IMG/VR virus record: IMGVR_UViG_3300017783_003196
Coordinates: 1 to 20,407 of that record
DNA: 20,407 nucleotides
From: a virus
Direction: 5' to 3' (one strand)
Part shown: one piece after another, positions 3,007-20,407 of the stretch
Numbering within the stretch: position 1 is the stretch's first letter
Layout: each line of letters opens with the position of its first letter
Notes under the pieces: model-generated
The model's input: only the letters and a program-made list of their open reading frames with translations
Databases searched by the model: none
What the model was told of the DNA's origin: nothing
Position numbers and translations under genes: made by a program

Positions 3007-3248
3007 AAATTAGATACTATCATAATATTAACGGATGGCGATGGTTAGGATTTTTTCTTGCTATGGCGTCTGCATTTATTTTAAGTGGAGGTGATCCTTC
3101 TTGGCAAGCCATAGGCTGGGGTGTTGCATGTTTTAGTTGCATCATTTGGATTTATATGGGTTGGAAAGATGGTGACACACCAAGAGCATTAATGGAATTA
3201 TTTTATTTGGTACTTGCCATGCGTGGAATTTATAACTGGATTCAATGA
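3003..3248 (+). CDS. Small three-helix membrane protein
   Basis: The product is 81 residues, starting at an ATG that overlaps the previous stop (ATGA). Three hydrophobic stretches are visible: about residues 11-28 (WRWLGFFLAMASAFILSG), 34-52 (WQAIGWGVACFSCIIWIYM) and 61-79 (ALMELFYLVLAMRGIYNW). The loop between helices 2 and 3 is charged (GWKDGDTPR). The ending AMRGIYNW recalls the helix ends of PnuC/SemiSWEET-type three-helix bundles, but this likeness is by eye only and may be due to composition. There is no signal peptide cleavage motif. The gene is wedged by two 4-base overlaps between a glycosyltransferase-like gene and a radical SAM gene, so it is made together with them. Function unknown; a small carrier half or a membrane tether are both possible. 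Confidence 0.7.
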   Translation: MKIRYYHNINGWRWLGFFLAMASAFILSGGDPSWQAIGWGVACFSCIIWIYMGWKDGDTPRALMELFYLVLAMRGIYNWIQ

Positions 3249-4612: not shown

Positions 4613-5603
4613 CCGCAAGTGTTTGATTGTGTGTAAGCACATCGTCCATTTCAATAAGCATATCTTTACACTGCTCAATACTCATTAATTTTATACTATC
4701 TAACAAGTAACGTATTTTATTCATACGTTTGATATGGTCTTCTTCAGTATCATAACTTTCGTCCCAACTGAATGTTTTAAATCCTAACTTGCGGATATAT
4801 TCTAATGTGTAAGGCGGAGCAACGCAAACAAACGGGCGTTTGTGTATCATTGCATTAACAGTTTTTTCACTAAAATTTCCTGTTGGTTGATAGAAGCGTG
4901 TTTCGTTTGCAACTACACAAAAACTCTTTGCGTAATACTTAGATAGTCCTGCTGGACCATTTAAGTTTCCTTCAGGCCATTTTTTATGTGCAGGATCTAC
5001 ACTTTGTAATTCTGTATCAATACTTAATGGAGGATTACTAAACGCCCAACTATAATAACCTGGAGTGTCTTGTAGGTGTTCTATTATTAAGCGTCTGTGT
5101 AAACTGTAACGCCAATTAGGACAGATAAAGTGTTTGTCAATATCATTATTAACTGTAAGCACACCGCCATTAAACTGATTGCGTAAAAATATATCAAAGC
5201 ATTTTAGTTTAAACGGATAATCTTTTATATGTTTCTCTACATTATAATCACAGGTGTATACAGTAATCTCTACATCTTTTAGTGTTTCACTAAATGCTAA
5301 TATACTGTCTAACTCATCAGCATAAAGATTTTCACCACCTTTGAATTCACTAAAGAAATCTCTGTTATGCTTTTTGCCAACTTCGTATAAACTTAACGGC
5401 TCGTACAAATATATGCTGAGTGTTTTAAGTTTCTTTGCTATCTTAGGAGTAAGAGGAAACTTATCAAAGTTTATTTTGTTTGTACCAGTAAAAATAATAA
5501 AAGGCTCTTTAGGAAACCAATGTTCAAACAGTTCATTAAACATTGAGCCTAACTTGGTAGACTTAACAGGTAAGTTACCCCAGAAAATATCTTGTGAAAA
5601 CAT
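4581..5603 (-). CDS. Glycosyltransferase-like protein (GT-B C-terminal, exostosin/GT10-like)
   Basis: The product is 340 residues. The most informative block is residues 228-285: a FCVVANETRF strand, then FSEKTVNAMIHKRPFV (244-259), then APPYTLEYIRKLGFKTF and DESYD. A similar arrangement (SEK followed by a small helix, a strand and a Pro-rich turn) is seen in the nucleotide-sugar half of exostosin and GT10-type GT-B glycosyltransferases. The N-terminal half is not recognisable. The start ATG and the stop of the upstream oxygenase gene share one base (TAATG), so the two are translationally coupled. It is the last gene of the minus-strand amidinotransferase operon. A role in adding the operon's product to a glycan is inferred; glycosyltransferase assignment is moderate. 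Confidence 0.55.
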   Translation of the reverse strand: MFSQDIFWGNLPVKSTKLGSMFNELFEHWFPKEPFIIFTGTNKINFDKFPLTPKIAKKLKTLSIYLYEPLSLYEVGKKHNRDFFSEFKGGENLYADELDSILAFSETLKDVEITVYTCDYNVEKHIKDYPFKLKCFDIFLRNQFNGGVLTVNNDIDKHFICPNWRYSLHRRLIIEHLQDTPGYYSWAFSNPPLSIDTELQSVDPAHKKWPEGNLNGPAGLSKYYAKSFCVVANETRFYQPTGNFSEKTVNAMIHKRPFVCVAPPYTLEYIRKLGFKTFSWDESYDTEEDHIKRMNKIRYLLDSIKLMSIEQCKDMLIEMDDVLTHNQTLAAKVYKNHKIL

Positions 5604-6097
5604 TACCAGTAGGTGCCAGTAATCTGTAAAGTGTATCTTGAATCAACACCAATGTTGCTGGCCGCATGTGGTACTTCAGGATGCCATAAAACAAACTCAC
5701 CTGCTTTCCAATTTACAAGTGCAGTACTATCTACTTCAAAGTAGTGTCCTGGTTTCCAATCTTCTAAGAATACAATAGCACGTCTTACATCTTCATGCTT
5801 CTGATTAAAAACTTTACAATATGTATTATAATGATCAACATGGGTAGGCATAATATCTAATGTATCCATTTTATAAAATACAAATCCACAGTTTTTTAAG
5901 TTTAATAATTGTGCAACTTGTTCAGCATAGTCAGGCATAGGATTACGACTGTCATACATTTTACCTGTTGTAGTTTCATGCGTATAACCTTGCTCACGCC
6001 ACGTATCAGACTCAGCACCTGTAATAGGTTGTCTAACGTAATTAAAATATTTGTATCCTTCGTCCCATAGTACAGGGCATTTACCTTTAGTCCACAT
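5603..6097 (-). CDS. 2-oxoglutarate/Fe(II)-dependent oxygenase-like protein
   Basis: The product is 164 residues. The facial triad is visible as H86-x-D88 (PTHVDHYNTY) and H144 (EVPHAASN), with R154 (SRYTLQITG) at the position that binds the 2-oxoglutarate carboxylate in the double-stranded beta-helix fold. Between them lie FLEDWKPGHYFEVD and the WKAGEFVLWHPEVPH stretch, typical of phage and bacterial hydroxylases of this superfamily. The enzyme would hydroxylate or desaturate a substrate using O2 and 2-oxoglutarate; the substrate is unknown. It overlaps the amidinotransferase gene by 11 bases and the downstream glycosyltransferase-like gene by 1 base. It may act on the guanidino product, on a sugar, or on a protein side chain. 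The second oxygenase of this type is at 12721-13335, but the two do not look closely related. Confidence 0.75.
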   Translation of the reverse strand: MWTKGKCPVLWDEGYKYFNYVRQPITGAESDTWREQGYTHETTTGKMYDSRNPMPDYAEQVAQLLNLKNCGFVFYKMDTLDIMPTHVDHYNTYCKVFNQKHEDVRRAIVFLEDWKPGHYFEVDSTALVNWKAGEFVLWHPEVPHAASNIGVDSRYTLQITGTYW

Positions 6098-7055
6098 CTC
6101 TTTTTACATCCAATGTTACGCAGTGAAAGCCACCGCCAAGTGTACGTTGATGTCGCATTGGTAACATAGCACACTCTATTCCTTGGTGCTCAAGGAGATG
6201 TCTTAGATCCTCTTGGTGTTCTTCTAATGCAACTAACTTTGTATTTACACTAAACAAATTCATGTTAATCCATGTACTTGCATTACACCATTTAGGAAAG
6301 TGACCAATGTCTACAGGTTCAGGACACCATATAATATCCCAATTTCTAAATGGCTCAGGCAAATCTTCTCTTACTTTTATTCTACTTGGATTAACAAGTA
6401 ATAACCCTTCACGCAAAAATGCAACAGTACTGTCAATGTGCATATAACTATAAACGTCTTGCAGTAGATTTACTTTAGCAGTAGAACCTAAAGCCCCTTG
6501 TAATAAGTTTGCACCTAACTTGTTTGCACTATTACTAACCAAGTATAGCAGTTGATCGTTTGCACGAATAATATTAGCGGCATCAAATGCAGGACTGTAT
6601 TCATTGAGTGCTAAAATATCTTTATTGCCAATACAGTCTTTGTTGTATAATTGACTTTCATTGAAGCAACGTATTTCTTTAGGATTATCTAAATGATGTT
6701 GAAATGCTCTCCACTCACCCTTTCTTGCTCGTATAGGCATCGGTGTAGCAAGTGTTAGATTACCGTGTACAAGTACACTATCTCTTGGACAGTAGTTATA
6801 GTAATTACAATTTGTTTTCTCAGGACGTACAACTTCTACATTTTCTGCTTGTAAAAATTCTACAAATGTTTCTAAGTCTTCATTTGCTTCTTCAATAACC
6901 TTATTTGGATAAGGTCCTTTGATAATTTCTGTTTCGTCTAACTTATCAGCAAAGTTTACACAGCGTAAACTAATATCAATATCATCAGGTATCTTTGCAT
7001 GATCTGCAACTCCAACTATTACTTTTCTAAGTTGACCCCATTCGTTTGTATTCAT
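6087..7055 (-). CDS. Glycine/inosamine amidinotransferase family enzyme
   Basis: The product is 322 residues. The N-terminus EWGQLRKVIVGVAD is the typical first strand of the pentein-fold amidinotransferases. RDSVLVHGNLTLATPMPIRAR (residues 91-111) matches the conserved block before the active site. The catalytic set is present: D158 in PAFDAAN, H206 and D208 in MHIDST, and the nucleophile C312 in GGGFHCVTLD. Known members (GATM, StrB1-type inosamine-phosphate amidinotransferase, cyanotoxin enzymes) move the amidino group of arginine to an amine, making a guanidino compound and ornithine. The cytoplasmic acceptor here is unknown; an amino sugar or amino-cyclitol is suggested by the adjacent aminotransferase-like gene. 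It overlaps that gene by 4 bases (ATGA) and the oxygenase by 11. The family call is strong; arginine deiminase is less likely because of the GATM-like blocks. Confidence 0.85.
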   Translation of the reverse strand: MNTNEWGQLRKVIVGVADHAKIPDDIDISLRCVNFADKLDETEIIKGPYPNKVIEEANEDLETFVEFLQAENVEVVRPEKTNCNYYNYCPRDSVLVHGNLTLATPMPIRARKGEWRAFQHHLDNPKEIRCFNESQLYNKDCIGNKDILALNEYSPAFDAANIIRANDQLLYLVSNSANKLGANLLQGALGSTAKVNLLQDVYSYMHIDSTVAFLREGLLLVNPSRIKVREDLPEPFRNWDIIWCPEPVDIGHFPKWCNASTWINMNLFSVNTKLVALEEHQEDLRHLLEHQGIECAMLPMRHQRTLGGGFHCVTLDVKRDVD

Positions 7056-12126: not shown

Positions 12127-12724
12127 TATTCAAGATATTAAGTTCTGGATGGACGCAATTCGCAATAGCGAAGATAAAGATCGTACATTAGAAACTTTTT
12201 GGGGTGGTCAAATACAATCTAAGTTATGGTTGATTAATACTATCTCAGAAAAGAACAAATTAATACGTAATGCTGAAATAGTTATACACGGAGGCTGGAA
12301 CGGATTACTGGCAAGTATGCTATTCAACAGCGAAGTAGGTGTTAAAAAAATTATAAGTGTTGATGTTGATCCTGTATGCAAGGAAATTGCAACTACAGTA
12401 AACAAGAGATACGAAATGGAAGGTAAGTTTGAAGCAGTGACTTGTGATATGGTAGATTACAAATATGAAACAGAGCCTTATATTGTTATCAACACAAGTT
12501 GCGAACACATTACTCATAAAAAATACAAACAATGGTTAAACAATGTACCAGATTCCGCACAGGTTATTGTGCAAAGTAATGATTACTACGAATTAGAAGA
12601 GCATGTTAATTGCTATGACAGTTTAGATCAATTTGCAAGGAAAAGTATGTTGGAGATAGAAGTAAAAGATGAGATTCAATTACCTAAGTACAAACGATTT
12701 ATGGTTATAGGGAAAAAGAAATGA
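12116..12724 (+). CDS. Class I SAM-dependent methyltransferase-like protein
   Basis: The product is 202 residues from the ATG at 12116. An upstream start at 12062 would lie inside the previous gene and lacks support. EIVIHGGWNGLLASML (about residues 54-69) is in the place of the SAM-binding glycine loop, with GGWNG in place of the common GxGxG. IISVDVDP (79-86) is the acidic second strand, and YIVINTSCEHI (122-132) sits where the catalytic-side motif lies. The fold assignment is reasonable but the glycine loop is diverged, so the cofactor role is not certain. No target domain is recognisable. It overlaps the short dehydrogenase gene by 11 bases and the oxygenase gene by 4 (ATGA). It may O- or N-methylate the cluster's product. 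Confidence 0.6.
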   Translation: MKIDIQDIKFWMDAIRNSEDKDRTLETFWGGQIQSKLWLINTISEKNKLIRNAEIVIHGGWNGLLASMLFNSEVGVKKIISVDVDPVCKEIATTVNKRYEMEGKFEAVTCDMVDYKYETEPYIVINTSCEHITHKKYKQWLNNVPDSAQVIVQSNDYYELEEHVNCYDSLDQFARKSMLEIEVKDEIQLPKYKRFMVIGKKK

Positions 12725-13335
12725 TACATAGACTTACACAATACGGTCAGCATATCGAATTAGACGTAACAACTGATCCAGAAATGTTAATTGCTTGGGC
12801 TAATGATTTTGAATGGCAAAAATATAATCCACGTAAAGATGTTAATCGTTGGGGATTAAGTGTTACAAGTTCAGACGGTACATTCAACGGTATTGATTTA
12901 GATAGTTTATACGAGTACAATAAAGAAAACAAAACATCATACAATGAAAAAGATTTTAACGTAGCAACTCCTGTACTAAACAAACAAATACATGATATAC
13001 TTAAACCTTGGGACAAAGATTATTATAGAACACACTTTTTAAAGTTTGGTCCAGGAGGATTCTTTCCTCCACACAGAGATTGGAACTACCATTCGGGTAA
13101 AGCAGACAGTTTTAGATTGATTATGCCTTTACGTAATGTTAATCCTCCGTACTTTAATTTTGTATTAGAAGATAAAACACTACATTGGGAACCAGGTAGA
13201 CTTTACTTTGTAGATACATTAAAAATGCACTATCTATTCAACAGTAGTTTTAATGATAGTTATTGGTTAATTGTAAATGTTGATTTAAATCCAGATACTA
13301 TTCAAAGCACACTTGAAAGGATGAATCAGAAGTAA
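12721..13335 (+). CDS. Aspartyl/asparaginyl beta-hydroxylase-like 2OG-Fe(II) oxygenase
   Basis: The product is 204 residues. FFPPHRDWN gives H118-x-D120, FRLIMPL carries R132, and GRLYFVDTLKMHYLFN gives the distal H170. This PPHRD...R...F-D...H pattern is close to the aspartyl/asparaginyl beta-hydroxylase branch of the cupin oxygenases. The enzyme would use O2, Fe(II) and 2-oxoglutarate to hydroxylate a small molecule or side chain; substrate not known. The N-terminal 80 residues are not recognised. It overlaps the methyltransferase-like gene in an ATGA arrangement and shares one base with the following radical SAM start (TAATG), so the three are co-translated. The other oxygenase at 5603-6097 belongs to a different branch. 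Confidence 0.8.
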   Translation: MIHRLTQYGQHIELDVTTDPEMLIAWANDFEWQKYNPRKDVNRWGLSVTSSDGTFNGIDLDSLYEYNKENKTSYNEKDFNVATPVLNKQIHDILKPWDKDYYRTHFLKFGPGGFFPPHRDWNYHSGKADSFRLIMPLRNVNPPYFNFVLEDKTLHWEPGRLYFVDTLKMHYLFNSSFNDSYWLIVNVDLNPDTIQSTLERMNQK

Positions 13336-14333
13336 TGTATAATTATCAGGACATAACGTCAATACATTTAGAAGTTACTTCTAAGTGCCAAGCACGTTGT
13401 CCAATGTGTCCACGTAGATTACATGGCGGTCCATTACTTGAGGGTTTAGATTTAGAAGAAATATCTATTGACACTTTCAAAGAATGGTTTCCTATAAGTT
13501 TTGTACAACAACTAAAGTTTCTTAATATGTGTGGAAACTTAGGAGATCCTATTGTTGCAAAAGATACATTAAAAATTTTTAGATACCTGCGTGAAAATAA
13601 TTCAGAAATGACATTGCAAATGCACACTAACGGAAGTGGTAGAACTAAAGAATGGTGGCGTGGACTTGCAGAACTAAAAGTAAAAGTTGTATTTGGTATT
13701 GACGGGTTAAATGACACACATGCATTGTATAGAATTAATACTAACTGGGAAAAGATTATTAACAATGCATCACAGTTTATACACGTAGGCGGAGATGCAC
13801 GTTGGGATATGTTAGTGTTTGCACACAACGAACATCAAGTTGATACTTGTGAAAAAATGAGTAAAGAATTAGGATTCAAAGGATTTAGTATTAAGCACAC
13901 TACAAGATTTAAAGATGGTAAGTTTGACGTACTTGATGACAACTACAATATCACACATACCTTATTGCCGTCAAGAAAGAGTCTTGAAATGATCGAGCCT
14001 GCAAAACAAGCAATGCAAGAAATACTACCTACAATTACTTGTAAAGCAAAACAAGATAATCAAATGTATATTAGTGCAAATGGTAATGTTAGTCCTTGTT
14101 GTTGGTTAGACTTAGAATGGATACCACAGCACTCAGCACAACGTATAGATTATATGGTAAAGATAGGTAAGTTTCCTAACCTACACAAGCAGTCCTTGAA
14201 AGAAATATTTGACAGTAACTTCTTTAACAAAATTAGTAGTTGTTGGACTTCAACTGGTATAAAAGAATGTTCAAAGCAATGTGGAAATTTTGACAAACTA
14301 AATGCACAGTTTGAAAGGAAAGAACATGTCTAA
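13335..14333 (+). CDS. Radical SAM protein with C-terminal SPASM domain
   Basis: The product is 332 residues. CX3CX2C is at C18, C22 and C25 (SKCQARCPMC). The usual GGEP is replaced by GNLGDP at 67-72, a variant at the SAM-carboxylate strand. C236, then NGNVSPCCW with C255 and C256, and finally C303, C312 and C316 form a SPASM-type auxiliary region. Enzymes with this layout include maturases of peptides and proteins as well as small-molecule enzymes. It lies between the beta-hydroxylase-like gene (1-base overlap) and an N-terminal-twitch radical SAM gene (8-base overlap). Radical SAM assignment is firm; substrate is unknown. Confidence 0.88.
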   Translation: MYNYQDITSIHLEVTSKCQARCPMCPRRLHGGPLLEGLDLEEISIDTFKEWFPISFVQQLKFLNMCGNLGDPIVAKDTLKIFRYLRENNSEMTLQMHTNGSGRTKEWWRGLAELKVKVVFGIDGLNDTHALYRINTNWEKIINNASQFIHVGGDARWDMLVFAHNEHQVDTCEKMSKELGFKGFSIKHTTRFKDGKFDVLDDNYNITHTLLPSRKSLEMIEPAKQAMQEILPTITCKAKQDNQMYISANGNVSPCCWLDLEWIPQHSAQRIDYMVKIGKFPNLHKQSLKEIFDSNFFNKISSCWTSTGIKECSKQCGNFDKLNAQFERKEHV

Positions 14334-17357: not shown

Positions 17358-17896
17358 TTGTAACAGGTAATCCTAATTATGAAGGCTTATGCTCGGGTAT
17401 ATGGGAAGCCTACAGTCGTAATCAAGTAGAATTTATTGGTAGATGGAATGACTGGGATCTTACAGATGCTGACGCAGTAGCAGAACACGTAAAAGATCAT
17501 AATGTATTTGTAAACAGTCAATACGGTCCTAATGGCGAACAAGTAGAATTGTTACGTAAGGTATATGAAAAGTTTAATGGTGAACACATTATTAATATTT
17601 CAAGCACAACAAGTTATTGGGGTGACGGATATAATCCAGGCAACTATCTTAAAAACAAAACCGAACTTGATGAATTAAGTAAAAAGTATTCACAGTACGG
17701 AACGTTTGGTAGTAGCAAAATTCGTGTAAGCAATATTGCGTTTGGTCAACTTGCATCACAAACACAATTAGATAAAAGCACTAATAACAAAATTAGTTTG
17801 CTTGAAGCAGGTAAACTTGTTAAATGGGTAATTGATAGTCCACGTAGTTACAACTTACACTATATGGCACTTGATCCTATACAAACAGATCTTTAA
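17348..17896 (+). CDS. Diverged short-chain dehydrogenase/reductase-like protein
   Basis: The product is 182 residues from the ATG at 17348. It starts RIVVTGNPNYEGLCSGI, in which the glycine-rich nucleotide loop is altered compared with TGxxxGxG. HNVFVNSQYG stands at the NNAG position. NISSTTS (S85, S86) and Y100-x3-K104 (NYLKNK) keep the catalytic Ser-Tyr-Lys set. It looks like a relative of the SDR at 15621-16211, with a changed cofactor loop. It ends the plus-strand operon, and its last 20 bases overlap the convergent minus-strand radical SAM gene. NAD(P) binding is likely but less sure than for the other SDR. Confidence 0.65.
   Translation: MRIVVTGNPNYEGLCSGIWEAYSRNQVEFIGRWNDWDLTDADAVAEHVKDHNVFVNSQYGPNGEQVELLRKVYEKFNGEHIINISSTTSYWGDGYNPGNYLKNKTELDELSKKYSQYGTFGSSKIRVSNIAFGQLASQTQLDKSTNNKISLLEAGKLVKWVIDSPRSYNLHYMALDPIQTDL
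17877..17896. other. Tail-to-tail overlap of two convergent genes
   Basis: The last 20 bases code on both strands: the plus-strand SDR-like gene stops with TAA at 17894-17896 and the minus-strand radical SAM gene stops at 17879-17877. No terminator hairpin with a T-run is visible on either side. Confidence 0.8.
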
Positions 17897-18995
17897 GTTC
17901 TGGACAATAATCTAAAACACTTGTATCTCTAATCTTATCTAAGTCCTTAGTATAGTTTACAAACATATCTAATAGTTTGCTATTGTTTTGTTCGTACGTT
18001 ATGTTAGGTAACTTGTGTTCAATACTTTGTAATACTTCATTAGGCAGTACACGAGGATTTAAGTAGGCAGGTTGTGCTACTACATTATTAAAGTATATAC
18101 TCCAATTATCTTTTTTGTTAGCATCAAACCAAGTTTGTATTTTATCTAAGTGTGCAATATTATATGCCATCACAGTTACAGCAATAATAATTCTATCAAA
18201 GTTGTATTGTTTTAGATTGTTATTAAGTTGGTCAAACGTAAAGTTCTTTCCACCTCTAATGTATTCATAAAGTCCGCCAGTGCCTTCAACACTTACTGTC
18301 CATTTAGTTTCGCCAAAGTGTCCAGCAAGTTCCTGTACTTCTTCATCAACAATCGTACCATTCGTTGTCCAGTCAAGTATAACATTTTTTGCAACTCCTA
18401 AGTCTATAAATTTGTGCAATATTTTTTTATTTGCAGGTTCCATGTAAGGCTCTCCGCCTTTAATACTAAGATAACGTAACCCCATAAACGGAGTAGGATC
18501 TTCAAATAAGCGTTCTATAATCTGTTCGCTTTTATTAACATATCCAAACTCTGGATTGTCAATTCTTCTATGATATGGATTACCATTTTGTGCAAGTTTC
18601 AATTCGTCTTTGACCCAAGCACTTGAATTGATTCCATCACACATTCTACATTTTAAATTACAAATATTACTCATATTAAATTCCAAAAACTTAATATCAT
18701 GGAAGTTTTTTGAGTAATCATTATTAGATTCTTCAAGCATTGGATTCAATATATCACGGAAGAATAATCTCCTACTATGACCTACTGTAGCCTCTTTTAA
18801 AGCACATTGTTGACACTCGGGCGGCAACACTCCATTACGGATACTATCCTTTGTGTATGACGCTGTAATGCTGTCTAAGACGGTGTTTAAGGGCTCTTGT
18901 AGCACGTTTCCGTAGCGTTTAGTGTACACACCATCAGGTACAATATCGCCGTTAAAACGTACCAAAATACTATGCCAGGGTGCGTAACATTTCAT
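17877..18995 (-). CDS. Radical SAM protein with degenerate N-terminal twitch region
   Basis: The product is 372 residues from the ATG at 18995, preceded by GGAGAG; a TTG at 19010 is a weaker start. The N-terminal region keeps C3 (KCYAPW), FNGDI and ECQQC (C61, C64), but where relatives have a cysteine or CC (VRVCC in the 14326 protein) it has VPDGVY. So one likely cluster ligand is missing, with D21 nearby. The barrel is standard: C112, C116, C119 (NICNLKCRMC) and IKGGEP (GGEP 180-183), with WTTNGT later. It is the last gene of the minus-strand operon and overlaps the phosphotransferase gene by 26 bases. It may bind a different cluster there, use an aspartate ligand, or have lost the auxiliary site. 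Confidence 0.85.
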   Translation of the reverse strand: MKCYAPWHSILVRFNGDIVPDGVYTKRYGNVLQEPLNTVLDSITASYTKDSIRNGVLPPECQQCALKEATVGHSRRLFFRDILNPMLEESNNDYSKNFHDIKFLEFNMSNICNLKCRMCDGINSSAWVKDELKLAQNGNPYHRRIDNPEFGYVNKSEQIIERLFEDPTPFMGLRYLSIKGGEPYMEPANKKILHKFIDLGVAKNVILDWTTNGTIVDEEVQELAGHFGETKWTVSVEGTGGLYEYIRGGKNFTFDQLNNNLKQYNFDRIIIAVTVMAYNIAHLDKIQTWFDANKKDNWSIYFNNVVAQPAYLNPRVLPNEVLQSIEHKLPNITYEQNNSKLLDMFVNYTKDLDKIRDTSVLDYCPELKDLFV

Positions 18996-19434
18996 CGAAT
19001 TTCTCTCCAAAAGCAGACCTTAAATCGCTTTCCAATTTATCAAATACTACACTGGGTTGATACACTCCTACATTGTCCCAATCAATTAATTCATATGAAT
19101 TACCTTGAACAATAATGTTACTGAGTACCCAATCTCCGTGTGCAAATGGTTGTGTGGTGTTAATGTTTTCTAAACAAAAATTGTATATACTTTTTACAAA
19201 TTCTGGTGTATGCGGTAGTGTGTTTGCTACAGTGCCTTCAATAATTTTAGTATCAATAAACATTCTGCCAGCGTCAATACCGTGATTAATAATGTAACCA
19301 GGACGTACTTCTTCCATTATATCAATATGGTCGTCAAGCCATTCTTGATTTGCAAAGTCCCATTGTTTACGATAAAAGTTTGCACCTTTATAAACACGTC
19401 TTAATTTTTCTTTATTCTCTTTAATTAATTCCAT
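18970..19434 (-). CDS. Minimal APH/choline kinase-like phosphotransferase
   Basis: The product is 154 residues, much shorter than the ~260-300 of typical aminoglycoside or choline phosphotransferases. The catalytic core is clear: FAHGDWVLSN (H99, D101, N106) is the catalytic loop and ELIDWDN (D118, D120) the metal-binding motif. The N-lobe is reduced to about 80 residues (LRRVYKG, FYRKQW, IIEGTVAN), and the usual C-terminal helices are nearly absent. It would phosphorylate a hydroxyl on a small molecule such as a sugar, cyclitol or choline using ATP, in the cytoplasm. It lies between two radical SAM genes, overlapping them by 14 and 26 bases. Whether this small form is active cannot be told. 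Confidence 0.75.
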   Translation of the reverse strand: MELIKENKEKLRRVYKGANFYRKQWDFANQEWLDDHIDIMEEVRPGYIINHGIDAGRMFIDTKIIEGTVANTLPHTPEFVKSIYNFCLENINTTQPFAHGDWVLSNIIVQGNSYELIDWDNVGVYQPSVVFDKLESDLRSAFGEKFDEMLRTLA

Positions 19435-20407
19435 AAGCCTTTGCTACCTCTGGGATATATTCTTTTAGACTACAGCCTCTTTGTTTATCAAAGATAGATA
19501 TCCATTTTTTAAATGCTTCTTGTTGAATAATATCTGCAGGTTGATCTACCCAGTACTTAAATTTTTCTGGACAGTATTGTTTAATTTCATCTGGTGCATT
19601 TTTTGTGTTAAGATATTCAGGATTCATTAATAAGTTATCAAAGAATTGAAAGTCATGTTTTTTACACCAATCAATAATTGTTTCGTAGTGATGTAAATTT
19701 AAAACTTGTATAGTAGGCCCGAGGCTTTTGTATTTTACTATCTCAGCCCATTTAAGCATATTAGTTTCTACTTGTTCCCAGTTACTACCCCAACGTATGT
19801 AATCGTTTACTTTACCAATACCGTCTATACTAAAACACATATTAACAGTTTCGAAACGTTTTAGTTCTTCATATATGTTAGGATTCATAATTGTAGCATT
19901 AGTATTAAAACGTACTTCAACTGAACTGTCTAACTTTTGTAAAAATTTATGAAGTCCTTTAACCATCATAGGTTCGCCACCTGTTAAGTATACTTCTCGT
20001 AGTTCAGGTAATGTGGCTAAGTATTCTCCACGCTCATCTGTGTACCAATCAAAGTTTGGAAAAGGTTCATTACCCCAAGGCGATTCAATACCTTGTTTAA
20101 GCATCTCTTGATGTTCTTTAGCAAGACTACTTGACACACCTGGATAACACATAGTACATTGTAGGTTACAGTTACTACCGAAACGTAAGTCTAAATGACT
20201 AACACCTGGACCATACTGTCGTGGTCTTGTACGTTGACTTGTTTCTCCGGCTTCTTCTTGTATTTTACATTTTTCACAAGCCTTGGGAAACAATCCGTTT
20301 TCAAATGTTGCAATAGCATTTTGATATGTTGCACTATTACGCCAGTCGTCTACAGTGTGTGTTGTTACATTTTCTCTATTAGTAGGTTCATTACTAATAC
20401 AACACAA
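19421..20407 (-). CDS. Radical SAM protein with N-terminal twitch domain, 5' partial
   Basis: The gene runs off the window edge; the TTG at 20407 is inside the coding region and not its start. The first visible residues, CCIS, match the CC that follows CPLPW...G-V in relatives, so roughly 20-25 residues are missing. Next come WRNSATYQ, ACEKC (C44, C47 of the visible part), then the barrel with CX3CX2C at C80, C84 and C87 (SNCNLQCTMC) and LTGGEP (GGEP 143-146). SIDGIGKVNDYIRWGSNW matches the same region of the 14326 protein. It overlaps the phosphotransferase gene by 14 bases and is upstream in that operon. Substrate unknown. Confidence 0.88.
   Translation of the reverse strand: MCCISNEPTNRENVTTHTVDDWRNSATYQNAIATFENGLFPKACEKCKIQEEAGETSQRTRPRQYGPGVSHLDLRFGSNCNLQCTMCYPGVSSSLAKEHQEMLKQGIESPWGNEPFPNFDWYTDERGEYLATLPELREVYLTGGEPMMVKGLHKFLQKLDSSVEVRFNTNATIMNPNIYEELKRFETVNMCFSIDGIGKVNDYIRWGSNWEQVETNMLKWAEIVKYKSLGPTIQVLNLHHYETIIDWCKKHDFQFFDNLLMNPEYLNTKNAPDEIKQYCPEKFKYWVDQPADIIQQEAFKKWISIFDKQRGCSLKEYIPEVAKAYGIN

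What the first reader, a model, noticed from the sequence alone, without database searches (positions are those of the whole stretch)
17877..18995. N-terminal twitch region missing a cluster cysteine
In the three relatives a cysteine follows the first strand after C-x-x-x-W (CYHP at 3245, CC at 14326, CC at 19421). This protein has VPDGVY there, while the first Cys and the C-x-x-C pair remain. An aspartate ligand, an open iron site for substrate binding, or loss of the cluster would each change the reaction.
Basis: seen in the sequence. Interest (0 to 1): 0.5.

Follow-up and report, generated by a model that had tools for sequence, protein, structure and literature searches.

The report
Radical enzyme with aspartate-for-cysteine cluster ligand
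A radical enzyme carried by bacteriophages has, at one of the four positions where its relatives use cysteine to hold an iron-sulfur cluster, a long-conserved aspartate that appears to have switched back to cysteine once in evolution, so the aspartate probably holds the cluster itself.

Summary
The protein at 17877-18995 (minus strand) is an N-terminal-twitch radical SAM enzyme (NF033640, 222 bits, cutoff 170). Its seven cysteines are C3, C61, C64 (twitch), C112/C116/C119 (radical SAM) and C364. The second twitch ligand, the Cys of C-x9-15-G-x4-C, is Asp21. A profile of the domain has one significant PDB match, BtrN (E 1.1e-5), and aligns D21 with BtrN Cys187. Asp21 is fixed in a clade (99/97 support) of phage proteins plus two Bdellovibrionia MAGs, down to 34% identity, with dN/dS about 0.1. 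C3 is present in 355 of 355 distinct homologous ORFs and C61/C64 in 354; position 21 is Cys in 297 and Asp in 53, the other five being four shifted rows and one spurious row. The tree needs two changes: one C-to-D and one D-to-C. The reverted lineage keeps signature residues and most neighbours. This favours Asp as a true fourth ligand over an open substrate site, a lost cluster, or rescue by C364. Ligation is unproven: model coordinates were not readable. Substrate is unknown; D-type genes of four other lineages lie beside or near an inosamine-type amidinotransferase.

The parts
17877..18995 (-). N-twitch radical SAM protein, 372 aa (the finding)
   Evidence: NCBIfam NF033640 222 bits vs cutoff 170; Pfam Radical_SAM PF04055 33.4 bits; 53 viral relatives
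18987..18989 (-). C3, first twitch ligand
   Evidence: 355 of 355 distinct homologous ORFs; aligns with BtrN C169
18933..18935 (-). D21 (GAT) in place of the Gx4C ligand cysteine
   Evidence: Asp in 53 of 355 distinct homologous ORFs, Cys in 297; aligns with BtrN C187
18804..18815 (-). C61-x-x-C64, third and fourth twitch ligands
   Evidence: both Cys in 354 of 355, the other row reads C/S; align with BtrN C232/C235
18639..18662 (-). radical SAM motif C112-x3-C116-x2-C119
   Evidence: three Cys in 354 of 355, the other row has an X at 116
17904..17906 (-). C364, the only spare cysteine
   Evidence: Cys in 40 of the 50 D-type ORFs and 20 of the 259 C-type ORFs that have a residue aligned there
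18970..19434 (-). small phosphotransferase-like ORF overlapping the start of the finding's gene
   Evidence: window copy: no Pfam or PHROGs hit at 0.001 and a sub-cutoff NCBIfam match to a kinase model, 16.2 bits; homologue L020:3204-3656 hits Pfam APH at E 0.0014, below the gathering score; family in 29 of 37 loci examined
19421..20407 (-). C-type N-twitch paralogue cut by the window edge, upstream on the same strand
   Evidence: NF033640 216.8 bits; complete N-terminus read in L005
6087..7055 (-). StrB-like amidinotransferase of the same island (a related family neighbours D-type genes in other lineages)
   Evidence: best PDB match inosamine-phosphate amidinotransferase 1BWD, E 4.7e-58

Best explanation
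This is a working N-terminal-twitch radical SAM enzyme whose auxiliary iron-sulfur cluster is held by three cysteines (C3, C61, C64) and one aspartate (D21). Steps shown here: family membership, the position of D21 at the ligand site of the BtrN-type twitch, its deep conservation, and one natural return to cysteine (inferred from trees). Steps inferred: that the cluster is present and is [4Fe-4S]; that the D21 carboxylate binds an iron; that this tunes the potential or lability of the cluster; and that the cluster takes the electron from a substrate radical, as proposed for BtrN, PqqE and SuiB.
For: The N-terminal domain profile has BtrN as its only significant PDB match and aligns D21 with C187, C3 with C169 and C61/C64 with C232/C235. 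Foldseek with the domain model (pLDDT 94.0) returns five chains with E up to 10, all SPASM/twitch enzymes, BtrN first (TMq 0.68, rmsd 2.0, E 0.9); VIA-align gives BtrN Z 5.0 over 75 residues. C3 is kept in 355 of 355 homologous ORFs and C61/C64 in 354; position 21 is C in 297, D in 53, and the other five are four rows whose Gx4C cysteine is shifted by one column and one spurious row. D-type rows plus revertants form one clade, 99/97, with two state changes on the tree. Revertants group with D-type L027 (100/97*), and holding the D rows together without them is rejected, AU p 0.0002. dN/dS is 0.09-0.12 against seven near relatives, and D codons vary synonymously. Precedent: Asp319 is inferred to ligate AuxII of PqqE (PMC5715301, passages). 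A C268H mutant of PqqE, one of its AuxI cysteines, still shows a [4Fe-4S] AuxI signal (PMC9012708, passages).
Against: No measurement and no readable model coordinates: distances from D21 to the cysteines were not checked. The Foldseek match of the isolated domain is weak (E 0.9, none under 0.001), the VIA-align Z is modest, and Pfam SPASM scores just below its cutoff (20.0 vs 21.5 bits). Asp can also be a labile ligand that leaves when substrate binds, which conservation cannot tell from a fixed ligand. A conserved Asp could have a second-sphere role. The revertants also differ from all D rows at seven other positions and lack one neighbour gene, so their function may not be unchanged.
Confidence: 0.62

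Rival explanations
1. Three-cysteine cluster with an open or easily opened iron site that binds substrate, as in MoaA; D21 only caps it or positions substrate.
For: Three Cys plus open site is known in the twitch of MoaA and in CteB (PMC6231123 passages). The D clade has its own conserved residues (for example D208, E186, N107, K67). That Asp is a weaker ligand than Cys is recalled, not from a call.
Against: An empty ligand position should drift, but it is Asp in all 28 D-clade rows other than the two revertants. The revertants put Cys back, which would close the site, yet keep D208, E186, N107 and K67 and most neighbours.
Confidence: 0.22
2. C364 near the C-terminus replaces the missing cysteine as fourth ligand.
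For: C364 is the only spare cysteine; it is Cys in 40 of 50 readable D-type but only 20 of 259 readable C-type ORFs.
Against: Ten of 50 readable D-type ORFs, from the deepest branches (L138/L139, L102, L103-L106, L107/L117/L259), and L293-L295 lack it, so D21 exists without it; revertants with the full cysteine set keep it. For the inner clade that has C364 this is not excluded by structure.
Confidence: 0.07
3. The auxiliary cluster is lost or is a [2Fe-2S]/[3Fe-4S] form; the domain is structural.
For: One ligand changed; [2Fe-2S] forms are known at this site in SkfB and PqqE (PMC6231123 passages).
Against: C3, C61 and C64 would decay after loss, but they are present in all 28 D-type rows of the 49-row set, and the gene is under purifying selection. 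A [2Fe-2S] form is not excluded by these facts.
Confidence: 0.08

Closest known systems
NF033640, twitch domain-containing radical SAM protein (N_Twi_rSAM)
   Same: Match above the curated cutoff over residues 3-371; same domain order, twitch then radical SAM core.
   Different: Second twitch ligand is Asp, not Cys.
BtrN, twitch radical SAM dehydrogenase of butirosin synthesis
   Same: Nearest solved twitch domain by profile and by fold; all four ligand positions align.
   Different: BtrN has four Cys ligands and its twitch after the barrel; here the twitch comes first and one ligand position is Asp. Substrate of the phage enzyme unknown.
PqqE (SPASM)
   Same: An Asp ligand on an auxiliary cluster (Asp319; PMC5715301, passages).
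   Different: In PqqE the Asp is on AuxII and stands for a Cys of the second half of the SPASM motif; here it is at the AuxI/twitch Gx4C position.
MoaA and SkfB twitch domains
   Same: Only three protein ligands seen on the cluster (PMC6231123, passages).
   Different: In SkfB the unused position is the Cys before the hairpin; no conserved Asp at the Gx4C position is mentioned for either in the passages read.

Membership tests
NF033640 N_Twi_rSAM | score above curated cutoff over the whole model | tested here: met
   222 bits vs 170, profile 5-398 of 398
Radical SAM superfamily | CX3CX2C motif and core domain | tested here: met
   C112/C116/C119; PF04055 33.4 bits vs 29.5; barrel matches such as NifB Z 12.6, viperin 12.3 and anSME 11.7
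SPASM/twitch domain | twitch fold | tested here: met
   profile A3 to BtrN E 1.1e-5; domain model: all 5 Foldseek matches with E up to 10 are SPASM/twitch enzymes, though none is below 0.001. Pfam SPASM alone is 20.0 bits, below its 21.5 cutoff
SPASM/twitch domain | CX9-15GX4C with both cysteines | tested here: not met
   C3-x12-G16-x4-D21
SPASM/twitch domain | three or four conserved cysteines for one auxiliary cluster (wording of PMC10452713, passage) | tested here: met
   C3, C61, C64 conserved
BtrN-type dehydrogenase | four-cysteine auxiliary cluster | tested here: not met
   Asp at the C187 position
BtrN-type dehydrogenase | two-electron oxidation of an aminocyclitol | not testable with these tools
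   needs substrate and enzyme assay
MoaA-type open-site twitch | open iron that binds substrate | not testable with these tools
   needs structure or ENDOR

The most novel reading that the evidence does not exclude
A whole clade of phage (and rare Bdellovibrionia) twitch enzymes uses an Asp-ligated auxiliary cluster in a BtrN-like dehydrogenase that works beside an inosamine-type amidinotransferase. On this reading the phages make or modify a guanidino- or amino-cyclitol or sugar, with alcohol oxidation by the radical enzyme, amination, then amidino transfer. The D-to-C revertant lineage would be a natural ligand-swap experiment.
Probability: 0.15. Interest if true: 0.75.

Novelty: new variant of a known kind. 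Interest (0 to 1): 0.52.

Why it matters
If D21 ligates iron, it would be an aspartate ligand at the AuxI/twitch Gx4C position, fixed over a deep clade. The cases that I read about have Asp on AuxII of PqqE or on other kinds of Fe-S protein. Natural D and C versions of the same enzyme (L027 and L038, 85% identical) give a clean pair for asking what a non-cysteine ligand does to the potential and role of an auxiliary cluster; PMC6231123 (passage) says that the coordination state of these clusters has long been debated. It also points to a large, uncharacterised set of N-twitch enzymes in phages: in 14 virus records 87 of 145 matches pass the NF033640 cutoff, 4 to 14 per record, against none in 14 control genomes.

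Tried and rejected
C364 as the replacement ligand: rejected on phylogenetic grounds, not on structure. The second cysteine of the CC pair as a switched ligand: it is G, C, A, V, P or R in the 53 D-type rows and I in L293-L295, so it cannot be the general replacement. Only the PDC subgroup (L048, L049, L098 and kin) keeps a Cys there; for that subgroup a one-residue ligand shift is not excluded.

Gene conversion as source of the CC in the revertants: L038 and its D-type sister L027 share the 15 bases before codon 21, so any donor tract would be short; not excluded. Sequence search of the PDB with the single protein found only weak matches, best SkfB E 0.018. Tblastn in the phage collection found two Vibrio phages, 27% identity over 41%. 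For the isolated domain VIA-align listed only BtrN, SuiB and SkfB of 7 chains compared. The first change count on the tree (9) used a faulty regular expression for the state; it was redone from the alignment column (2 changes). A first count of D-type rows without C364 (13 of 53) included three ORFs cut before that position; it is corrected to 10 of 50. The PLP-enzyme guess for the neighbour family (L107:4166-5119 and kin) got no support from Pfam, NCBIfam or PDB searches.

Rows chosen by hand: of the 98 rows listed, I gave 84 to and added five (L038, L077-L079 and L150:2862), making the 89 of A2; A3 holds 78 of the 88 cut rows; the tree holds 40 of the 89 A2 rows plus nine others. The 355 ORFs are distinct strings, so a cut copy of a gene counts again (for example L003, a cut copy of the window gene).

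Literature: searches listed no title or abstract that describes an Asp at this twitch position. I read passages, not whole texts. Most subscription papers are not held, and the Grell review was not held.

Full report
WHAT IS THERE. The window is an IMG/VR virus fragment of 20407 bases. The ORF on the minus strand from 18995 to 17877 encodes 372 residues. It matches NCBIfam NF033640, 'twitch domain-containing radical SAM protein', with 222 bits against a cutoff of 170, profile positions 5-398 of 398. Its seven cysteines are 3, 61, 64, 112, 116, 119 and 364. C112/C116/C119 are the radical SAM motif. C3, C61 and C64 are three of the four expected twitch ligands. The SPASM motif begins CX9-15GX4C in PMC6231123 (passages); here it reads C3-x12-G16-x4-D21. 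One detail is not: the 19421 relative is cut by the window edge, and its first motif, read in L005, is C-x-x-x-D.

IS D21 A CLUSTER LIGAND POSITION? A profile of the N-terminal 82 residues (78 rows, A3) searched against 177635 distinct PDB sequences gave four matches with E up to 10: two BtrN constructs (1.1e-5 and 1.3e-5), SuiB (0.56) and one named mt-SAF34 (1.1). In the printed alignment C3 falls on BtrN C169, position 21 on C187 and the C-x-x-C on C232/C235 (numbers counted from the alignment). PMC6231123 and PMC9012708 (passages) state that four cysteines ligate the BtrN auxiliary cluster. The whole protein was predicted at mean pLDDT 93.9 and the domain alone at 94.0. The model shows a helix after C3, two short strands with the second ending just before D21, and C61/C64 on a helix. 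Foldseek of the domain gave five matches with E up to 10: BtrN, SuiB (three chains) and SkfB, all SPASM/twitch enzymes, BtrN best with TM 0.68 and rmsd 2.0; none reached E 0.001. VIA-align gave BtrN Z 5.0 over 75 residues. Coordinates could not be read, so no distances are claimed.

CONSERVATION. Of 53 viral relatives from a single-protein scan, 48 cover the start; 42 have Asp (VPDGVY or TPDGVY, but VPDPVY in L026 and VPDCVY in L048/L049/L051) and six have VPCCVY (L038-L042, L055). Over the 289 sequences (window and loci) held by then, 355 distinct ORFs had the N-terminus covered. C3 was present in 355; C61 and C64 in 354; position 21 was C in 297, D in 53, S in 4 and N in 1. The four S rows have the cysteine one alignment column later and obey Gx4C. 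The N row (L205) shows no twitch motif and is taken as a chance row. An earlier pass with a narrower profile gave 327 ORFs with C 267, D 52 and 8 other. These sets were fetched with D-type queries, so the D fraction is not a population frequency. In a later probe of 15 phage records chosen as C-type, nine had a match at E 1e-60 or better to the D-type profile. I fetched four stretches from these records: three hold a further D-type group, VLPDIIY (L293-L295), and the fourth (L296) is C-type. Of 290 genomes of the phylum of the Bdellovibrionia MAG L138, six had a match at E 1e-40; of the nine loci returned, the two best, 92% identical, are D-type, and the motifs read in the other seven are C-type.

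HISTORY. In a tree of 89 rows built without columns 21-22, the state changes twice. Forcing the 26 D rows into one clade without the revertants is rejected (AU p 0.0002), whereas the 30 rows with the four revertants form one clade, 98*. In a second, more careful tree of 49 rows that includes the new D groups and four bacterial C-type rows, the 28 D rows plus two revertants form one clade (99/97) and again two changes suffice. Long branches at the base (for example L138, L102) make the inner order unsure. The simplest reading is one old C-to-D change and one recent D-to-C change; parsimony counts do not by themselves give direction. L027, the D-type sister, reads GAC GGA at codons 21-22; L038 reads TGC TGT (four differences in six bases) and L077 TGT TGT (five), and L038 and L027 share the 15 bases before codon 21. 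Revertants come from nine separate contigs (L038-L042, L055; L077-L079). L038 and L077 agree with each other but differ from all 26 D rows at eight positions, one of them position 21. They keep the clade's other signature residues, such as D208, E186 and N107. Their upstream neighbours are the same families as in D-type L024 and L028; downstream, L039 and L078 lack the family-4 ORF that adjoins the gene in L024 and L028. L038 is 85.2% identical to L027 and 75.5% to the window protein. dN/dS between the window gene and seven near relatives is 0.09-0.12, and 0.16 to L038.

WHICH EXPLANATION. If the cluster had been lost, the three remaining cysteines should decay; they do not. If the position were simply vacant, as in MoaA, it should drift; in the sampled clade it is always Asp, except where it is Cys again. 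If C364 had taken over, D-type proteins without C364 should not exist; 10 of the 50 D-type ORFs that reach that position lack it, among them the deep branches, and so do L293-L295. An Asp ligand explains all of these facts. Asp319 of PqqE is a precedent on AuxII, where D319S keeps the cluster but lowers SAM cleavage (PMC5715301, passages). [quoted passage not shown] that C268 is the Gx4C cysteine is my inference from the order of ligands. What an Asp does to the potential here is not known. A labile Asp that leaves when substrate binds is a mixed case between the best reading and the open-site rival. For the PDC subgroup a shift to the neighbouring Cys is not excluded.

SURROUNDINGS AND POSSIBLE ROLE. 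Fourteen virus records that carry D-type or revertant genes were examined. Seven have a T4-type major capsid gene (Gp23). All fourteen have NF033640 matches over the cutoff, 4 to 14 per record (87 of 145 matches; below the cutoff such matches also occur in all 14 control genomes). The Gp23 of one record (L289) is closest, among 50697 phage records, to those of Sinorhizobium phage Phosso (74.8%, 469 kb), Vibrio phage 2.275.O (70.2%, 349 kb) and PA5oct-type phages (69.7%, about 287 kb). No call tells the habitat of the contigs. T4-like ocean viral genomes rich in radical SAM genes have been reported (PMC5332604, passages), and radical SAM cassettes are described in the host-recognition island of pelagimyophages, which also holds glycosyltransferases (PMC7029224, passages). 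In the window clade a small phosphotransferase-like ORF precedes the gene, directly or with one or two genes between (family in 29 of 37 loci). In four other D-type lineages (L103/L104/L106; L107; the bacterial L138/L139; L293-L295) an amidinotransferase lies immediately upstream or one or two genes upstream; it was not seen beside L102 or L105. The L138 member and the window amidinotransferase have the inosamine-phosphate amidinotransferase 1BWD as best PDB match (E 5e-30 and 4.7e-58), ahead of SxtG, HsvA and arginine:glycine amidinotransferase, and L294 is 45% identical to L138. The link is not exclusive: with the window amidinotransferase as query 8 of 28 records matched, five of the 13 chosen as D-type or revertant and three of the 15 chosen as C-type, one of which (G305) proved to carry a D-type gene too. 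That query missed, at its threshold, the members found in G302 and G303 and in G307 and G310. A BtrN-like oxidation next to inosamine-type amidino transfer suggests amino- or guanidino-cyclitol or sugar chemistry. This is a lead only; no substrate was tested.

VERDICT. It is a new ligand variant of a known kind of enzyme. Confidence that D21 is a ligand is about 0.62; the mended counts did not require a change.

Noticed in passing
L038-L042, L055, L077-L079: Natural D-to-C revertants; L038 and L077 show four and five base differences from the D-type sister packed in codons 21-22, and also K179L next to GGEP and N123A near the radical SAM motif.
   Followed up: partly
L296 (851 aa ORF) and G160:C47 (886 aa ORF, L211): Single open frames long enough for two N-twitch radical SAM units; in L211 two Cys motifs of that kind are visible in one frame.
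   Followed up: no
L138 record (G001 contig C192): A Bdellovibrionia MAG contig with 14 matches to the N-twitch protein at E 1e-10, plus amidinotransferase and hydroxylase-like genes; looks like a biosynthetic or phage-derived island.
   Followed up: partly
window 6087-7055: StrB/AGAT-type amidinotransferase in the same island; 63% identical to one in Synechococcus phage S-SCSM2R annotated inosamine amidinotransferase.
   Followed up: partly
L107:4166-5119, L138 (2131 bases before the match), L294:4663-5565: Neighbour family that resembles a PLP enzyme by eye; recurrent near D-type genes. No match in the searches run: L107 copy in Pfam and NCBIfam, L294 copy in PDB and NCBIfam.
   Followed up: partly
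window 12721-13335 and L139:8986-9786: Aspartyl/asparaginyl beta-hydroxylase-like oxygenases (Pfam PF05118) in both the phage and the bacterial island.
   Followed up: no
L020:3628-4869 and 4865-6001, and kin: Two tandem proteins of about 380-415 aa with repeated IYxxPYG/xxPPxG-like stretches, directly upstream of the D-type gene in one phage subgroup; no Pfam or PHROGs match for the two copies tested, L032:3601-4869 and L020:4865-6001.
   Followed up: no
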